Source of the DNA: Candidatus Poribacteria bacterium
GTDB taxonomy: Bacteria > Poribacteria > WGA-4E > PCPOR2b
Direction: 5' to 3'
NCBI GenBank assembly: GCA_022822005.1
Contig: JAJECO010000044.1
Coordinates: 124,001-188,000, forward strand
DNA length: 64,000 nt
The translations under genes and the position numbers were made by a program. The notes under the pieces are model-generated. The model ran no database searches, was not told the DNA's origin, and worked only from the letters and a program-made list of their open reading frames with translations. Shown here piece by piece: positions 3,598 to 9,204 of this stretch. Numbering within the stretch: position 1 is the stretch's first letter; the number at the start of each line of letters is the position of its first letter.

Positions 3598-3617
3598 TAT
3601 GAGAAAGGTTAGTTACG

Positions 3618-4796
3618 ATGTCCATCTTTCTCATCGGAATGGATCAGACTGTGGGCGCCATCCATTTTGGCGATCGTATTGCATGGATCTGGCGTTCCGG
3701 TGCCTACCGTAACCTGCTCCTCCTTGCGATGATTGCAGCGGCGATCCTCCTCATCCGATACGCAGCACGTCAGGAGTATTGGCGGAACGCTGCGCGTCAG
3801 GTCCGTGGACGTCGGCTGGCGATACTCTCCTTTGGTATCCTGTCGGTCTACCTGTTGGTTGGACTGCTTGATAGCATCCGTTGGGCTGATCCGGTGATTA
3901 ACCCGGACGGGAAACTGACCCGCAACGAATCGAGTCAACTCATCTACTCCCCGCGAAGGTGGAGCCTGCTCGATCGGATCTGTACGCCGTTACGTGAGAA
4001 CGCCGAAAAAACCTACTCCGCACCCCTCGCAACCCACCTTTACACCAAAAGCACGATCCGGCAACCGGATGGACGGGTCACCCGCGAATATCCGCCGCTA
4101 CAACACCCACGTTCACACCTCTTTGGGACAGACAAGGTTGGCACCGATGTCTTCTACCGCGCCTTGAAAGGGATTCGGACGGCACTGATCATCGGTGGGT
4201 TCACAACGCTGACTGCGATCCCGTTCGCGCTCTGCTTCGGCGTACTCGCCGGCTATTTCGGGGGACGGGTCGATGACGCCGTTCAATATATCTACTCCAC
4301 CCTCGCTTCCATTCCGAGCATCCTGCTGATCGCTGCGTTCATGCTCCTGTTCGGGCACGGTCTGTCTAACCTCTGTCTCATCTTGGGTATCAGCAGCTGG
4401 ACCGGGCTGTGTCGGCTGCTGCGCGGCGAGACCCTCAAGCTGCGCGAGTTAGAATATATCCAAGCCGCAGAAGCCTTCGGCACAAGCCGGTGGAAGATCA
4501 TCCTCAAACATATCGTCCCAAACGTTATGCACATCGTTCTTATCTCTGCGGTCCTACGTTTCAGCGGACTGGTTTTCTTTGAAGCGCTGCTGACCTATCT
4601 CCAGATCGGCGTGGATCCGACGACGGGCAGTTGGGGCAACATGATCAACACCGCCCGCTTGGAGTTAGCCCGCGATCCAGTGGTCTGGTGGAATCTTATC
4701 GCCGCGTTTACCTTTATGTTTGGGTTGGTGCTACCGGCAAATCTGTTCGGGGATGCGGTGCGCGATGCGTTAGATCCGCGCCTGCGGACAGAGTAG
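3618..4796 (+). CDS. ABC transporter permease, DppC/OppC type
   Basis: Inner-membrane permease of a peptide/nickel-type ABC importer. Two hydrophobic segments lie at the N-terminus (about 33-47 and 68-85), then a roughly 90-residue extracytoplasmic loop, then the conserved core FGTDKVGTDVFYRALKG leading into the BPD_transp_1 region. The ATPase-docking EAA loop reads EAFGTSRWKIILKHIVPN, and the C-terminus LFGDAVRDALDPRLR is typical of DppC. At 392 aa it is longer than classical DppC (about 300 aa) because of the N-terminal extension. Start at ATG 3618 with AGAAAGG upstream. Partner permease, ATPases and binding protein are not in the window, so it is either an orphan or pairs with distant genes. 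Confidence 0.9.
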   Translation: MSIFLIGMDQTVGAIHFGDRIAWIWRSGAYRNLLLLAMIAAAILLIRYAARQEYWRNAARQVRGRRLAILSFGILSVYLLVGLLDSIRWADPVINPDGKLTRNESSQLIYSPRRWSLLDRICTPLRENAEKTYSAPLATHLYTKSTIRQPDGRVTREYPPLQHPRSHLFGTDKVGTDVFYRALKGIRTALIIGGFTTLTAIPFALCFGVLAGYFGGRVDDAVQYIYSTLASIPSILLIAAFMLLFGHGLSNLCLILGISSWTGLCRLLRGETLKLRELEYIQAAEAFGTSRWKIILKHIVPNVMHIVLISAVLRFSGLVFFEALLTYLQIGVDPTTGSWGNMINTARLELARDPVVWWNLIAAFTFMFGLVLPANLFGDAVRDALDPRLRTE

Positions 4797-4812
4797 AAGG
4801 AGGAAGATAGAA

Positions 4813-5106
4813 ATGGATATGATGGAAACTTTTACAGTGAACGTGACGGGAGGGTTATGGAGCCTGCCTGTCGGTGCGATTGCTATCTGTGTGTCTGTTA
4901 TTGCGCTCATTGTGCATATTACCTTTGCGATAGCAGTGTTTCGGGACGCGACCAATTTGCCCGCTGATAGAAAACCGATTTTCGTGGGTCCCATGATTTG
5001 GTTTTTGGGGGCACTCGTCGGGGGCGTGTTTGTCGCAGCTATCTACTGGGTCATGCACCATTCACGCCTGAATCAAGCGATTCCCGCAACCCCACCGGAA
5101 GATTGA
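4813..5106 (+). CDS. Small two-TM membrane protein
   Basis: 97-aa protein of unknown function. Two hydrophobic segments are visible, about residues 16-42 and 59-82, joined by a polar loop containing FRDATNLPADRKP; the tail HHSRLNQAIPATPPED is polar. ATG 4813 follows a strong AGAAGGAGGAAG ribosome site, and the gene lies 16 nt after the permease, so the two are probably co-transcribed. It may be an accessory membrane subunit, but nothing in the sequence proves this. Confidence 0.75.
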   Translation: MDMMETFTVNVTGGLWSLPVGAIAICVSVIALIVHITFAIAVFRDATNLPADRKPIFVGPMIWFLGALVGGVFVAAIYWVMHHSRLNQAIPATPPED

Positions 5107-5482
5107 GATGACCCAAGTTGCTATGCCGTAGCTGTTATGCAAATTAAGACGCTCCAATAGTTGCAATCCTACCACTGCCCGCTGAATAGGCCATCTGCAA
5201 AGTTATTCGACTGCTCTTAGTTCTACCAACTCGTTTGTTGTCTTAGCACTCGGATCTGGGTCAGCAGCAAGTACATGGAAGGGGCTGCCCTTCGTGCTTT
5301 CCCTCCACAAGGTCGTCAGTCGTAGCAGATTCTGACGTGCTGTCTGCTTATCGCCTCAGACAGAGTAATCTCAACGCTATTGGTAAGCGTTTCTGATTGT
5401 GCGAATAGGCACCTTGGTCTTGACTGTCCCATCATGGTTCTTGCGATGCATCACGACGTATTTTCATTTTTGGAAAAATAGT
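5107..5482. other. Intergenic stretch without a recognisable gene
   Basis: No intact coding region or repeat family was found. On the minus strand, short open stretches (5360-5470 region, reading HRKNHDGTVKTKVPIRTI) look faintly protein-like but are broken by stops in every frame. This could be an old gene remnant, without firm support. Confidence 0.4.
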
Positions 5483-5512
5483 TTACCGATTTTTGCAGAA
5501 TACTGGTATAAT
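5483..5512 (+). promoter_or_regulatory. Predicted extended -10 promoter of the HEPN cassette
   Basis: TATAAT at 5507-5512 preceded by TGG (extended -10), with a weak -35 TTACCG at 5483-5488, spacing 18. It lies about 60 nt upstream of ATG 5573 and is the only good promoter before the three-gene cassette. Confidence 0.55.
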
Positions 5513-5572
5513 ACAGCCTCAATCGCCTTTTGAAGAGGGCAATTGTGCTTTTTCGCATCCAAGGAGAACACT

Positions 5573-6118
5573 ATGGAGCCGACACTAAACCAAGCTAGCA
5601 TCATCTTAGCTGCATCAGACCATGAACCTGATATTGTTACTCAAGAATGGCTGGAACAAAACAGTATCCTCAAAGAGGAACCTATCGAGTTTGTATATCG
5701 CCAAGGCCGGTTATTCGTTGAAACCGAAAATTACTCTATAAATCTAGTAGCACAACAATTAAAAATTGCAGCGAAAAACTCTAATACAGAAGTGCTTAAC
5801 AACCTACAAATTATAGCGAACCAATACATTGAAACACTTCCAAAACTATCATATAACGCAGTAGGACTTAATTATAATTGGCAAGTTCTATCGACAGATG
5901 CTGATCTTCTAAAGAAAACCCTCGTAGCAAACCCAAAAAAATTCGACAGAGCGATTCCTGACAAGACATATGGGATTGGTGGATTCATATACTACGAATA
6001 CCAGGCATTTAATGTTTTTCTAATGGTAATCTCAGAGCCAGATGACCATATTGCTGCTGATTTCAACTATCACTCAGACATTACCGATTCTCAGCAACTA
6101 AGTCAAAAAATCTCCTAG
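5573..6118 (+). CDS. Unknown protein, first gene of AT-rich cassette, interrupted by in-frame TAG
   Basis: Function not recognised. Start ATG 5573 is set by AAGGAGA 9 nt upstream. The 181-residue product is soluble, with no signal or membrane segment, begins MEPTLNQASIILAASDHEPD and contains GIGGFIYYEYQAFNVFLMV. Reading through the TAG at 6116-6118 gives 18 more sensible codons (FTDIKENARDTITKLLGN) to TAA at 6173-6175, two bases before the next gene. The original gene therefore almost certainly ran to 6175 (200 codons), and the TAG, one change from CAG or AAG, is a nonsense mutation, a sequencing error or readthrough. Base composition is clearly more AT-rich than the flanking catabolic genes, suggesting transfer. 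Confidence 0.7.
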   Translation: MEPTLNQASIILAASDHEPDIVTQEWLEQNSILKEEPIEFVYRQGRLFVETENYSINLVAQQLKIAAKNSNTEVLNNLQIIANQYIETLPKLSYNAVGLNYNWQVLSTDADLLKKTLVANPKKFDRAIPDKTYGIGGFIYYEYQAFNVFLMVISEPDDHIAADFNYHSDITDSQQLSQKIS

Positions 6119-6177
6119 TTTACTGATATTAAAGAAAATGCACGTGATACGATAACAAAATTGTTAGGAAATTAAAA

Positions 6178-6852
6178 ATGCCGACTCCAAGATCCATAAA
6201 TCCAGTTTTTGAGCATCATGATAAAGACTTAATCTTCGGTTGGACTACCACTGGTAATCAACTGTTGTTTGATAAGTCAGGCGACACGGCGTTTAAGCGG
6301 CCTTGGGGTGCCGCAGCACCCAGGCACATCATCATTAATTATTCAACCGTTGCCGAACCTGCCGGAGCGTTGATTGGTAGCCCTGCCGTCCGCGGATACA
6401 AACAATGGGATGAACTTGATGTGGAGAACATAGTTGCTGATCCCCAGGGTTCTGTTCTGTACGGCGCGGTACGATCAGCTTCTTTAGTAATGACCCGCAG
6501 CCACACACCAGAAATTCAAGCACGCCTTCGTACCCTTGTTCGTACTTTGTTTGAAGCTCGCCCACAGACAAGTGTTCAAGACGAGGTTGAAGAAATCAAA
6601 GATTGGTATGCCGACAAAGTTAGCCAAACATTAGAAGCAGAAGCACTTCTCTACAAGCAACACGGGAAGAACATTGAATTTGTCGTTGTAGTTGACCATA
6701 TTCGCCGCGACCACTCGTTCCAACTGTCTGATCTTGCCTGTGAACTAGATGATCTCTATCCGCATTGGGACTTTGGATTTCAATATGTTAGCATTCGCAC
6801 TGCTGGACAGTTGCCTCTAGACGAATATTCGGATCTTATCAATGGTGGTTAA
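6178..6852 (+). CDS. Unknown soluble protein, second gene of AT-rich cassette
   Basis: 224-aa protein, family not recognised. It has no signal peptide or membrane helix. Conspicuous stretches are DLIFGWTTTGNQLLFD (N-terminal), a helical middle region rich in E and K (about 125-165, TSVQDEVEEIKDWYADK), and a beta-rich C-terminal part with IEFVVVVDHIRRDHSFQLSD. No nucleotidyltransferase (GS..D) or P-loop motif is visible. It starts two bases after the original stop of the preceding gene and ends two bases before the HEPN-like gene, so the three are a tight operon and probably act together. Confidence 0.75.
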   Translation: MPTPRSINPVFEHHDKDLIFGWTTTGNQLLFDKSGDTAFKRPWGAAAPRHIIINYSTVAEPAGALIGSPAVRGYKQWDELDVENIVADPQGSVLYGAVRSASLVMTRSHTPEIQARLRTLVRTLFEARPQTSVQDEVEEIKDWYADKVSQTLEAEALLYKQHGKNIEFVVVVDHIRRDHSFQLSDLACELDDLYPHWDFGFQYVSIRTAGQLPLDEYSDLINGG

Positions 6853-6854
6853 GA

Positions 6855-7235
6855 ATGCTAACATTCCCGGCGCCAGATTTCGATGAACACTGCGAAAAGC
6901 GCGATAAAGCTAAAGCTGCTCAACTTGCCCTGCAAAAAGTGAGTCTGAAGGAACACGCAGATTGGATTGTTATCATTGCTTTCTACCAAGCATTGCACTG
7001 GGTTGACGCATATCTTATTTCTGTAGGGCATCAGCAGCCCACAGGTCACGAAAAACGTAAAAACCCTGTTCGTAGCAATCCATCTCTCAGACCAATCTAC
7101 AGACACTTTGAGTACATGCACACTGCAAGCGAGCACGCTCGTTATGATAGTTGGGAAGATTATTTTCCTGAAGTACAGGTAATACTTGAGAAAGATCTAA
7201 ATGCAATAATTGATCATATAAGCCAACTAATATAA
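6855..7235 (+). CDS. HEPN-like domain protein, third gene of AT-rich cassette
   Basis: 126-aa all-helical protein resembling small HEPN-domain proteins. The pattern DWIVIIAFYQALHWVDAYL, then GH..GHEKRKN and SEHARYDSW matches the HEPN subgroup with an FYxALHxVxAYL helix followed by H..R and S..ARY. An R-x4-H is present as R79-PIYR-H84, the spacing of the HEPN RNase motif, but whether it occupies the catalytic position cannot be judged here. HEPN proteins are typical of toxin-antitoxin and antiphage systems, where they cleave RNA. The stop codon TAA (7233-7235) is formed at the junction with an R1 MITE. Partners are the two preceding unknown genes. Confidence 0.75.
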   Translation: MLTFPAPDFDEHCEKRDKAKAAQLALQKVSLKEHADWIVIIAFYQALHWVDAYLISVGHQQPTGHEKRKNPVRSNPSLRPIYRHFEYMHTASEHARYDSWEDYFPEVQVILEKDLNAIIDHISQLI

Positions 7236-7396
7236 CCTAAGTTGCCAGTTATAAGGAAACGATTCAAATCGAGCGAATAAACGCTAAATTCACCCCATCA
7301 CTGCTCGCAGTGGATTGCCAAATCCACTGCATGTTTACAAAGATGGCTTGGATATGCCTATCCAAGCGGAGCAGACCGGACAACTAGCAACTTGCG
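7235..7396 (+). mobile_element. R1 MITE inserted at the stop codon of the HEPN-like gene
   Basis: Element of about 162 bp. Left end ACCTAAGTTGCCAGT (7235-7249), right end ACTAGCAACTTGCG (7383-7396), flanked by TAATATA at 7228-7234 and 7397-7403. It contains the GTGGATT..AATCCAC and CTTGGATA..TATCCAAG hairpins. Without the insertion the coding frame would have read CTA ATA TAG, so the gene kept a stop codon after insertion. Confidence 0.7.
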
Positions 7397-7443
7397 TAAT
7401 ATAGCGAGCCTAAAATTCTTGCTGATATTGCCACTGAAAACGG

Positions 7444-7581
7444 ATGGGCATTGCCACCAGAAAAACAATGCTTTCCAAGAATCGAATCCTCAGCCCTCTA
7501 CTCACCCTCCTTTTCCTATCCCCGCTCTCCTGCGCCGACAAGCCCACCGAACCCGAACTCACCGAAGAAGACGTGGCGTGA
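7444..7581 (+). pseudogene. N-terminal fragment of a lipoprotein gene
   Basis: A 45-codon open frame; from the second ATG at 7468 it is 37 codons. It encodes a convincing lipoprotein signal: MLSKNRILSPLLTLLFLS followed by the lipobox-like SPLSC, then ADKPTEPELTEEDVA and TGA. After only about 15 residues of mature protein it stops, nine bases before the end of the convergent PAP2 gene. Best read as a gene start left by a rearrangement; a genuine tiny lipoprotein is less likely. No strong ribosome site. Confidence 0.4.
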
Positions 7582-7590
7582 ATTGTCGCT

Positions 7591-8181
7591 TCAAAACCGC
7601 CACGCCAACAACGTCCCCCGATGCCGTGAGACGAGCGCGCCGGTGAGTGTGCCGACCGCTGCGCCGGCAATCACATCAGACGCGTAGTGCCTGCCCAGAT
7701 AGATCCGCGTGACCCCCACCAATCCCGCGCCGATGTATAACGGAATACGAAGCTTAGGATACCGATTTCCGAGCAGTGTCGCACCGGCGAAAGCGTAGGC
7801 GGTGTGCCCCGACGGAAACGCCGGATTACTGGCATCGTCCAAGGGGCGCTTACGTCCGATGATCTCTTTCATCCCCCAAACGATTACACCTGTGCTGATG
7901 AAAGTGGAGGTCAGCAGCCTGCCCGTGTCACGGTGCGTATCGCCGCCGTAAGCCATCAGGAGCAGGGAAACCCCCAGCATCGTCCTGCCATCGCCGAGGT
8001 AGGTGCCCAACTCCATAGCGGTGCCGAGCGGCTCACTTCGGGGCGGTTCATCATAGATCGCATCGAATATGTCTTGGTCCAACCGAATAAAAAAATTATC
8101 TTCTTCGGCGTACCCCGCGACAGAGGTTAGGCAGAAAAACAGCGTCCACAGAGCGGTTTGAAGGGTTCGTATTTTCATCAT
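7591..8181 (-). CDS. Exported PAP2-family phosphatase
   Basis: Type 2 phosphatidic acid phosphatase-like enzyme, 196 aa. All three PAP2 motifs are visible: KEIIGRKRP (K105-P113), FPSGH (H126) and TRIYLGRHYASD (R159, H165, D169). An N-terminal signal-like segment (MMKIRTLQTALWTLFFCLTSVAG) precedes EEDNFF, and later hydrophobic stretches place the active site on the membrane/periplasmic side. By family it dephosphorylates lipid or isoprenoid phosphates. M2 at 8178 is an equally possible start; neither has a good ribosome site. The AXE1 esterase lies upstream, 29 bp away, on the same strand. Confidence 0.9.
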   Translation of the reverse strand: MMKIRTLQTALWTLFFCLTSVAGYAEEDNFFIRLDQDIFDAIYDEPPRSEPLGTAMELGTYLGDGRTMLGVSLLLMAYGGDTHRDTGRLLTSTFISTGVIVWGMKEIIGRKRPLDDASNPAFPSGHTAYAFAGATLLGNRYPKLRIPLYIGAGLVGVTRIYLGRHYASDVIAGAAVGTLTGALVSRHRGTLLAWRF

Positions 8182-8210
8182 TTGATAATCTAAGTTAGGG
8201 GGAATAGGGG

Positions 8211-9173
8211 CTAAAGCCCGCTCATAAACTGAAAGATCTGGTCTCCATGTCCCGGCAGGTCTTCGTGCGCGAAGTCAGGAAAAACCGCTAACGACTTCTC
8301 CGACGTTATCTTGTTATAAGCCGCAAATTGCGTCGAAGGCGGACAGATCGTGTCCATCAGCCCTACCCCCATAAAGACCTCACCACGGATCCGTGGACAG
8401 AGGTACTGCACGTCGATATAGCCGAGTTTCTCAAATATCGCCCTTTCGCGCTCGTGGAGCGGATCAAACTTACGGAAGTATTCCGCCAATTCGGCGTAGG
8501 CATCTTTCGCCTGATCCATCTCCCACACCCGTTGGTAATCGCAGAGGAACGGGAACACAGGCGCTGCGCGTTTGATACGCGGTTCCAGTGAGGCGCAGGC
8601 GAGCGTCAATCCACCGCCTTGGCTCCTGCCGGTCGCGCCGACCCGATTTTCGTCCACATCCGGCATCTCCATCACAATTTTTGCGAGCTGCGCTGTATCC
8701 AAAAAGATTTGGCGGTAGAGCAATTTTTCCGGCGCATCGTCAAGTCCACGGATAATATGGCCGCGCAACGTCCACCCTGTTACACCGCCCCTATCTTCCG
8801 ACGAACCGCCCTGCCCACGACAATCGAGTGCGGCGACGGTGTGACCGAGCGCGGCGTAACCCAATTTGCTCGTCCAATCGCCGGCATCGCCGGAGTAGCC
8901 GTGGAACATCAGCACCGCCGGGTGCGGGTCGGGCGCGTTATTCGGGCGAATCAGCATAGCGTGAACCCGCGCACCGCCGACACCGGTGAAATAGAGATCC
9001 GAACAGTCGGCGAAGGGGGTCTGGAAACTCGCTGGCACTATCTCAATTTCGGGATCAACTTCCTGCATCTCCGCAAGCGCGTCCTCCCAAAAAGAATCAA
9101 AATCATCGGGACGCGGATTTATGCCCTGATAGGTTTCCAACTCCGCCAACGATATATCAAAGGTCAAAGGCAT
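8211..9173 (-). CDS. Acetyl xylan esterase / cephalosporin-C deacetylase (CE7, AXE1) family
   Basis: Alpha/beta-hydrolase of carbohydrate esterase family 7, 320 aa, the normal length. The catalytic triad is readable: S184 in GRSQGG, D274 in GLMDTICPP and H303 in FAHED. RGQGGS (119-124) is the conserved CE7 oxyanion-side motif, and the N-terminus PRPDDFDSFWEDAL is family-typical. It lacks a signal peptide, so it would remove acetyl groups from imported oligosaccharides in the cytoplasm. Start ATG 9173 is preceded (coding sense) by GAGAGGAGAAATT. Fits the glycan-degrading context of the GH32 genes further along. Confidence 0.93.
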   Translation of the reverse strand: MPLTFDISLAELETYQGINPRPDDFDSFWEDALAEMQEVDPEIEIVPASFQTPFADCSDLYFTGVGGARVHAMLIRPNNAPDPHPAVLMFHGYSGDAGDWTSKLGYAALGHTVAALDCRGQGGSSEDRGGVTGWTLRGHIIRGLDDAPEKLLYRQIFLDTAQLAKIVMEMPDVDENRVGATGRSQGGGLTLACASLEPRIKRAAPVFPFLCDYQRVWEMDQAKDAYAELAEYFRKFDPLHERERAIFEKLGYIDVQYLCPRIRGEVFMGVGLMDTICPPSTQFAAYNKITSEKSLAVFPDFAHEDLPGHGDQIFQFMSGL

Positions 9174-9204
9174 ACAATTTCTCCTCTCTCATTGTAACGT
9201 AACG

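What the first reader, a model, noticed from the sequence alone, without database searches (positions are those of the whole stretch)
5483..7235. AT-rich three-gene cassette with a HEPN-like protein: candidate new defence or toxin-antitoxin system
Three genes with 2-bp spacings, own extended -10 promoter, lower GC than flanks and a MITE at the end. The last encodes a HEPN-like protein with R-x4-H; the first two match no family I can name and lack the usual MNT nucleotidyltransferase partner motif. A fixed trio with a HEPN protein would be unusual.
Basis: partly seen in the sequence, partly recalled or inferred. Interest (0 to 1): 0.75.

Follow-up and report, generated by a model that had tools for sequence, protein, structure and literature searches.

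The report
HEPN toxin with motif-less antitoxin-like partner
A small mobile gene cassette in an uncultured bacterium carries a probable RNA-cutting suicide protein and a partner that looks like a known antitoxin enzyme stripped of its active site, a pairing that recurs in two other bacterial phyla but that standard gene catalogues do not recognise.

Summary
The cassette is real, but it is a conserved pair plus an optional third gene, not a fixed trio. Gene 3 (6855-7235) folds as HEPN: pLDDT 94.5, VIA Z 14.8 to HEPN protein 2hsb. Gene 2 ends in an alpha-beta-beta-alpha-beta domain whose first Foldseek matches are MNT antitoxins, but it lacks GSX10DXD (0 of 40 relatives; 28 of 28 ordinary MNTs). 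A frame of that family directly precedes HEPN as the best profile hit in 49 of 51 loci. Gene 1 has a premature TAG and strong homologues in 2 other of 84 genomes, once without HEPN. Two same-genus genomes lack the insert, about 4799-7594. Best reading: a mobile toxin-antitoxin or abortive-infection module in which a non-enzymatic, MNT-fold partner restrains a HEPN toxin by binding. No function has been tested.

The parts
4799..7594 (.). Insertion relative to two same-genus genomes (G019, G022) that have the left and right flanks adjacent
   Evidence: blastn: window 3615-4798 then 7595-9198 with 13 bases between them in G019 (L171); window 3617-4791 then 7591-8360 with 167 bases between them in G022 (L170)
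5504..5512 (+). Extended -10 promoter-like sequence TGGTATAAT
   Evidence: Exact string; no paired -35 found by the scan
5573..6175 (+). Gene 1: frame of 200 codons interrupted by TAG at 6116-6118 (codon 182); optional third component
   Evidence: 45% identical to the 200-aa gene of L020; homologue L090 36% to the L020 gene; TAG
6178..6852 (+). Gene 2: partner, 224 aa; about 110 residues of low-confidence N-terminus, then an alpha-beta-beta-alpha-beta domain (about 130-222) of MNT-like topology without GSX10DXD
   Evidence: AlphaFold2, Foldseek top hit 5yep_A, an MNT antitoxin, leave-one-out profile E 5.3e-9, motif test
6855..7235 (+). Gene 3: HEPN-fold protein, 126 aa; invariant W37, Y44, H65, R96, Y97
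   Evidence: AlphaFold2 pLDDT 94.5, VIA Z 14.8 to 2hsb, 44-row alignment, hhalign with PF05168 proteins P 9.1e-6
7236..7400 (.). Dispersed repeat bordering the cassette (MITE-like)
   Evidence: 44 matches in the own genome with query 7230-7400

Best explanation
The cassette is a horizontally moving toxin-antitoxin or abortive-infection module. Gene 3 is the toxin: a diverged HEPN domain of the HEPN-T (PF05168) type that probably cuts RNA with a site built around H65, R96 and Y97. Gene 2, made first from the same operon, is the antitoxin: its C-terminal domain is a minimal-nucleotidyltransferase (MNT) fold that has lost the GSX10DXD loop. It therefore cannot AMPylate the toxin as type VII antitoxins do and should restrain it by binding. 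Its variable N-terminus and the exchangeable upstream gene (gene 1 here; DUF6941, DUF3467-like or other proteins elsewhere) would set what releases the toxin. Shown by computation: the HEPN fold, the conserved pair and gene order, the missing motif, the insertion. Supported but not proven: MNT ancestry of gene 2. Inferred: RNase activity, neutralisation by binding, the sensing role of gene 1, anti-phage use. In this genome gene 1 is truncated by a stop codon, so the local trio may work as a pair.
For: HEPN fold: AF2 pLDDT 94.5; VIA Z 14.8, rmsd 2.8, 117 residues to 2hsb, with HEPN or nucleotidyltransferase-linked helical domains filling nearly all of the top 27 rows. Profile link to 22 PF05168 HEPN proteins of related genomes: P 9.1e-6, five controls 0.22-0.68. 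H65, R96, Y97 in 44 of 44 rows. Pair: the frame directly upstream of HEPN is the best partner-profile hit in 49 of 51 loci, 38 of 51 at E below 1e-3. Partner: Foldseek hits 1, 2, 4 and 6 (5yep_A, 7aer_A, 7ae2_B, 6m6v_A) are MNT antitoxins; hhalign with 28 ordinary MNTs P 0.014, five controls 0.24-0.77. Motif: 0 of 40 against 28 of 28. Same gene order as ordinary MNT-HEPN pairs in the same genome, for example G000:C23. Insertion: empty site in 2 genomes. Literature: motif mutants of MntA reduce neutralisation (PMC7641770, passages), so a motif-less MNT may keep some by binding.
Against: No activity is known for any member. Gene 2 scores about equally with KH domains of ribosomal S3 (VIA Z near 9) and a CzrB domain (Z 9.3), and its best VIA hit, an MNT-type protein (2rff, Z 9.8), has rmsd 6.2; Foldseek gave no E below 0.001 for either protein. 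Profile searches of the PDB by sequence found neither HEPN nor MNT. The canonical RX4-6H is not conserved in gene 3, so RNase activity is less certain. In L027, L049, L073, L075 and L087 the upstream frame ranks first but only with E 0.14-1.6, and in L048 it ranks fourth. The window lies beside metabolic and transport genes. Gene 1 is broken here.
Confidence: 0.57

Rival explanations
1. It is an ordinary type VII HEPN/MNT toxin-antitoxin pair in which gene 2 adenylylates gene 3.
For: Gene order, sizes, HEPN fold and the MNT-like best fold matches agree; ordinary pairs are common in the same genomes.
Against: GSX10DXD is absent in 40 of 40 partner relatives and present in 28 of 28 ordinary MNTs; RX4HXY is absent from gene 3, and helix 2 carries FYxALHxVD where ordinary HEPN proteins carry QQxxEKxxK.
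Confidence: 0.07
2. Gene 2 is a KH-like or ferredoxin-like RNA- or protein-binding domain with no MNT ancestry; the pair is then a binding adaptor plus HEPN RNase.
For: VIA gives S3 KH domains Z up to 9.2 and CzrB Z 9.3, tied with the MNT hits.
Against: The first Foldseek hits are MNT antitoxins from HEPN complexes, the weak profile match to MNT is colinear with a gap at the GS loop, and the gene sits where MNT sits.
Confidence: 0.25
3. Gene 3 is a non-catalytic RNA-binding HEPN regulator rather than a toxin, as proposed for MtlR-type proteins (PMC3710099, section 14, read).
For: The canonical RX4-6H is not conserved.
Against: Five positions including H65, R96 and Y97 are invariant across phyla, which points to an active site; PMC3710099 section 6 notes HEPN-T proteins with an alternative, more N-terminal H; mobility fits a toxin module.
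Confidence: 0.15
4. The three genes are a chance neighbourhood of unrelated AT-rich genes carried in by one insertion.
For: Gene 1 has a homologue without HEPN (L100) and gene 1 is broken.
Against: Partner and HEPN are adjacent in 49 of 51 loci, and the complete trio recurs in L020 with 1-2 base spacings.
Confidence: 0.03

Closest known systems
Type VII HEPN/MNT (HepT/MntA) toxin-antitoxin
   Same: Two small adjacent genes, MNT-position gene first, HEPN gene second; HEPN fold; partner domain nearest to MNT in Foldseek
   Different: No GSX10DXD in the partner (0 of 40), no RX4HXY in the toxin, variable N-terminal parts and an optional third gene
HEPN-T family, PF05168 (for example AF_0298, PDB 2hsb)
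   Same: Fold (VIA Z 14.8); H and RY positions align
   Different: Below Pfam's cut-off (7 of 44 rows at E up to 1, best 0.0063); QQxxEKxxK of helix 2 replaced
AbiV (HEPN abortive-infection protein, PDB 9bj6)
   Same: HEPN fold; part of a two-component antiphage system by the PDB title; lacks RX4-6H (PMC3710099 Table 1)
   Different: Weaker fold match, VIA Z 6.4; no MNT-like partner is stated in what I read

Membership tests
HEPN superfamily | All-helical HEPN fold | tested here: met
   Z 14.8 to 2hsb, top rows dominated by HEPN chains, first unrelated bundle (metavinculin) at Z 8.2
HEPN superfamily | RX4-6H motif at a conserved place | tested here: not met
   columns of R79 and H84 hold R in 11 and H in 10 of 44 rows. 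The superfamily includes members without it (PMC3710099, sections 5 and 6, read)
HEPN-T (PF05168) | Score above Pfam gathering cut-off | tested here: not met
   window protein no hit; 7 of 44 relatives at E up to 1, best 0.0063
HEPN-T (PF05168) | Conserved H and RY positions | tested here: met
   H65, R96, Y97 in 44 of 44; ordinary rows H 20, R 21, Y 22 of 22; aligned by hhalign
Type VII HEPN/MNT toxin-antitoxin | GSX10DXD motif in the antitoxin | tested here: not met
   0 of 40 partners, 28 of 28 ordinary MNTs
Type VII HEPN/MNT toxin-antitoxin | RX4HXY motif in the toxin | tested here: not met
   the invariant R96 is followed by YDSWED in the window protein; RPIYRH (R79-H84) is followed by FE, not by xY
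Type VII HEPN/MNT toxin-antitoxin | MNT fold of the partner | tested here: inconclusive
   MNT hits first in Foldseek, but KH and CzrB chains tie by Z; hhalign P 0.014
Type VII HEPN/MNT toxin-antitoxin | Nucleotide transfer to the toxin | not testable with these tools
   Needs biochemistry
Known defence systems (PADLOC 2.0.0) | Match of any of the three proteins to a model | tested here: not met
   no family at E up to 10 (gene 1 was given up to its TAG)
TIGR04255 (for gene 1; recalled lead) | Match to the NCBIfam model | tested here: not met
   no hit for the window gene, its L020 homologue, or the L027, L072, L078, L084, L087 upstream genes

The most novel reading that the evidence does not exclude
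A widespread, so far uncatalogued class of HEPN immunity: a core of HEPN RNase plus a catalytically dead MNT pseudoenzyme that holds it by binding, into which different upstream proteins (gene 1 type, DUF6941, DUF3467-like) are plugged as interchangeable sensors, so that one suicide switch is wired to many triggers.
Probability: 0.3. Interest if true: 0.72.

Novelty: new variant of a known kind. Interest (0 to 1): 0.52.

Why it matters
[quoted passage not shown] A conserved branch, across phyla, whose antitoxin lacks the transferase motif would show that MNT-type partners can work without catalysis, would allow a direct test of binding against AMPylation, and would explain genes that Pfam, NCBIfam and PADLOC leave unnamed. 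The exchangeable upstream gene offers a way to find what such modules sense.

Tried and rejected
Profile searches of the three window proteins in Pfam, PADLOC and NCBIfam gave nothing above a cut-off; gene 2 had a below-cut-off hit to BCDHK_Adom3 (E 4e-4) that no other of 40 relatives shares, taken as chance. tblastn in plasmids was empty for genes 2 and 3 and for two HEPN relatives. The genome-contig scan with gene 2 alone found no relative. Sequence searches of the PDB with the profiles gave only chance-level hits, no HEPN or MNT. I thought the N-terminal part of the L026-type partners looked HicB-like; Pfam did not support it, so it is dropped. A TIGR04255 identity for gene 1 was recalled and not supported. 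Gene 1 against the L072/L084 upstream genes: hhalign P 0.0088 with two rows each, too weak to claim. A string GSPAVRGYKQWDELDVE in the low-confidence N-terminus of gene 2 resembles the MNT motif but has DxxD; no relative has it in the strict search, and it was rejected.

Neighbour test for defence genes: up to 5 frames from each of 27 of 29 module regions (132 of 143 frames; regions L190 and L197 and two frames of L192 were left out because the script had not located their HEPN) against 119 frames from 25 of 29 control regions (four very short control contigs gave no frame). PADLOC at 1e-10: 176 model families in the test against 57 in the control; most of the 25 control families shown are Cas models of one type. 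The tool lists only 25 families and no loci, so I call it inconclusive. In four of the regions kept (L181, L191, L192, L193) the region's middle stood in for the HEPN gene.

Rows dropped before counts: L085 (a short match inside a larger frame) was left out. The 51 loci include near-copies (such as L070/L071, L045/L047, L073/L076, L025/L026). In 11 loci whose partner was not a row of A5 no relatives were removed from the training set, and the alignment was not rebuilt for each hold-out. A5 leaves out 5 of the 44 partner references (L047, L048, L049, L061, L068).

Full report
Observation. The window belongs to a genome of the Candidatus Poribacteria (related records are so titled; the window is G000:C58:124001-188000). 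Three same-strand frames lie at 5573-6118, 6178-6852 and 6855-7235. GC is 0.377, 0.468 and 0.423 against about 0.565 in the flanks. TGGTATAAT begins at 5504, without a -35 found by the scan. Gene 1 carries an in-frame TAG at 6116-6118 (codon 182); the frame then runs on for 18 sense codons to a TAA two bases before gene 2, and an unbroken homologue shows that those codons belong to the gene. The stretch after gene 3 is a repeat with 44 matches in the genome.

Mobility. In two same-genus genomes the transporter permease on the left (window 3615-4798) is followed directly by the PAP2 and hydrolase genes on the right (window 7595-9198): 13 bases apart in G019 and 167 in G022. The left-flank search found a match in 4 of 6 genomes of the genus, own included; in the third relative, G021, the contig ends before the right flank could be judged. 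The stretch 4799-7594 is thus an insertion here or a loss in both; the low GC favours insertion.

Gene 3. No Pfam family matches the window protein at E up to 10. Among 44 relatives the most recurrent Pfam family is HEPN PF05168, 7 of 44, best E 0.0063, below its cut-off. AlphaFold2 with the 44-row alignment gives pLDDT 94.5 and five helices. Foldseek ranks HEPN 2hsb first (E 0.013, probability 1.00); VIA gives it Z 14.8, rmsd 2.8 over 117 residues, and HEPN or nucleotidyltransferase-linked helical domains fill nearly all of the first 27 rows. Profile comparison with 22 ordinary PF05168 HEPN proteins from related genomes gives probability 83 and P 9.1e-6; five reversed, shuffled or crossed controls give 0.22-0.68. 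W37, Y44, H65, R96 and Y97 are invariant in 44 rows. H65 and R96-Y97 align with the conserved H and RY of the ordinary proteins (20, 21 and 22 of 22), while the ordinary QQxxEKxxK of helix 2 is replaced by FYxALHxVD. PMC3710099 (sections 5, 6 and 14 read) describes HEPN-T members that lack the usual H but have another conserved H further N-terminal; the present family resembles those.

Gene 2. Residues 1 to about 110 have low model confidence; residues 130-222 form helix, two strands, helix, strand with pLDDT mostly above 90. Foldseek's first two hits in the PDB are the MNT antitoxin of Shewanella HEPN/MNT (5yep_A, E 4e-3; 7aer_A), with 7ae2_B fourth and 6m6v_A sixth. VIA lists MNT-type chains (2rff 9.8 with rmsd 6.2; 1ylq 9.1; 8xeo 8.5) tied with a CzrB domain (9.3) and ribosomal S3 KH domains (about 9). 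hhalign with 28 ordinary MNTs gives P 0.014, colinear, with a gap at the GS loop; five controls 0.24-0.77. The catalytic GSX10DXD is in 28 of 28 of those and in 0 of 40 partner relatives. PMC7641770 (passages) shows that this motif transfers AMP to HepT and that motif mutants reduce neutralisation.

The pair is conserved. Gene 3 relatives occur in 9 of 84 genomes of the phylum, 9 of 246 sampled from the phylum of a Phycisphaerales record and 18 of 398 sampled from the phylum of a Bacillota record, and in viral contigs. With partner profiles that exclude the locus's own row and rows above 40% identity to it, the frame directly upstream of HEPN is the best hit among all frames of the locus in 49 of 51 loci, with E below 1e-3 in 38 and rank 1 with E below 0.05 in 44 (limits under Tried and rejected). 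Of the two misses, L040 starts at a contig end and L048 (viral) ranks fourth; the other viral locus, L049, ranks first at E 0.23. Overlaps of up to 53 bases or gaps of up to 102 bases separate the two genes.

The third gene is not fixed. Gene 1 has two strong homologues in 84 genomes besides the window: L020, with the whole trio, and L090/L100, where it is followed by two other genes and no HEPN; nine further genomes match only at E 0.002-0.09. Elsewhere the place before the partner is held by DUF6941 (L066, E 6e-19), small DUF3467-like proteins (L075, E 0.0033, below cut-off; others similar by eye), other 210-250 aa genes (L027, L072, L078, L084, L087), or no frame that I could call.

Context. 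The L020 trio lies between hsdM and hsdS of a type I restriction system; the pairs L019 and L026 lie next to type ISP restriction genes at what appears to be the same chromosomal site; L100 holds a DNA methylase gene. The window itself has no defence gene next to it. The PADLOC comparison of neighbours with controls leans towards defence but is not decisive.

Mechanism. Gene order (inhibitor first), the HEPN fold with an invariant polar site, and mobility suggest a toxin that acts on RNA. Because the partner lacks the transferase motif it should act by binding. The variable parts upstream would set the trigger. RNase activity, binding, and the role of gene 1 are inferred.

Literature. Searches for DUF6941, DUF3467 or TIGR04255, for degenerate or inactive nucleotidyltransferase partners of HEPN and for three-gene HEPN systems listed no paper that by title or start of abstract describes this pair. 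Only open-licence papers are held, and apart from the sections and passages of PMC3710099, PMC7641770, PMC2701414 and PMC11586414 the listed papers were not read.

Verdict. A new variant of the HEPN/MNT kind, not a member of type VII by its defining motifs, with a fixed two-gene core and an exchangeable third gene.

Noticed in passing
G000:C54:84359-84655 (L019, HEPN 6297-6683 -, partner 6756-7337 -): A second, more distant copy of the partner-HEPN pair in the same genome, next to a type ISP restriction enzyme; a similar arrangement occurs in G020 (L026).
   Followed up: partly
window 6116-6118: Premature TAG in gene 1, 18 sense codons before the natural end; nonsense mutation, recoding or assembly error cannot be told apart here.
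   Followed up: partly
window 4813-5106: 97-aa frame, by eye with membrane helices, between the permease and the cassette; missing at the empty site in G019 and G022.
   Followed up: no
L100 1797-3692: Gene 1 homologue followed by a 279-aa and a 145-aa gene without Pfam family, near a DNA methylase: gene 1 seems to be shared between different modules.
   Followed up: partly
L066 1435-2658 (-): DUF6941, partner and HEPN genes overlapping by a few bases in a genome of the planctomycete phylum: a possible role for DUF6941.
   Followed up: partly
window 7230-7400: Dispersed repeat with 44 matches in the genome, with two copies nearly in tandem at G000:C58:206858-207192.
   Followed up: partly
L048 and L049 (viral contigs): HEPN genes of this family on viral contigs; in L049 the module follows a gene that by eye looks like a terminase, so phages may carry it too.
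   Followed up: no
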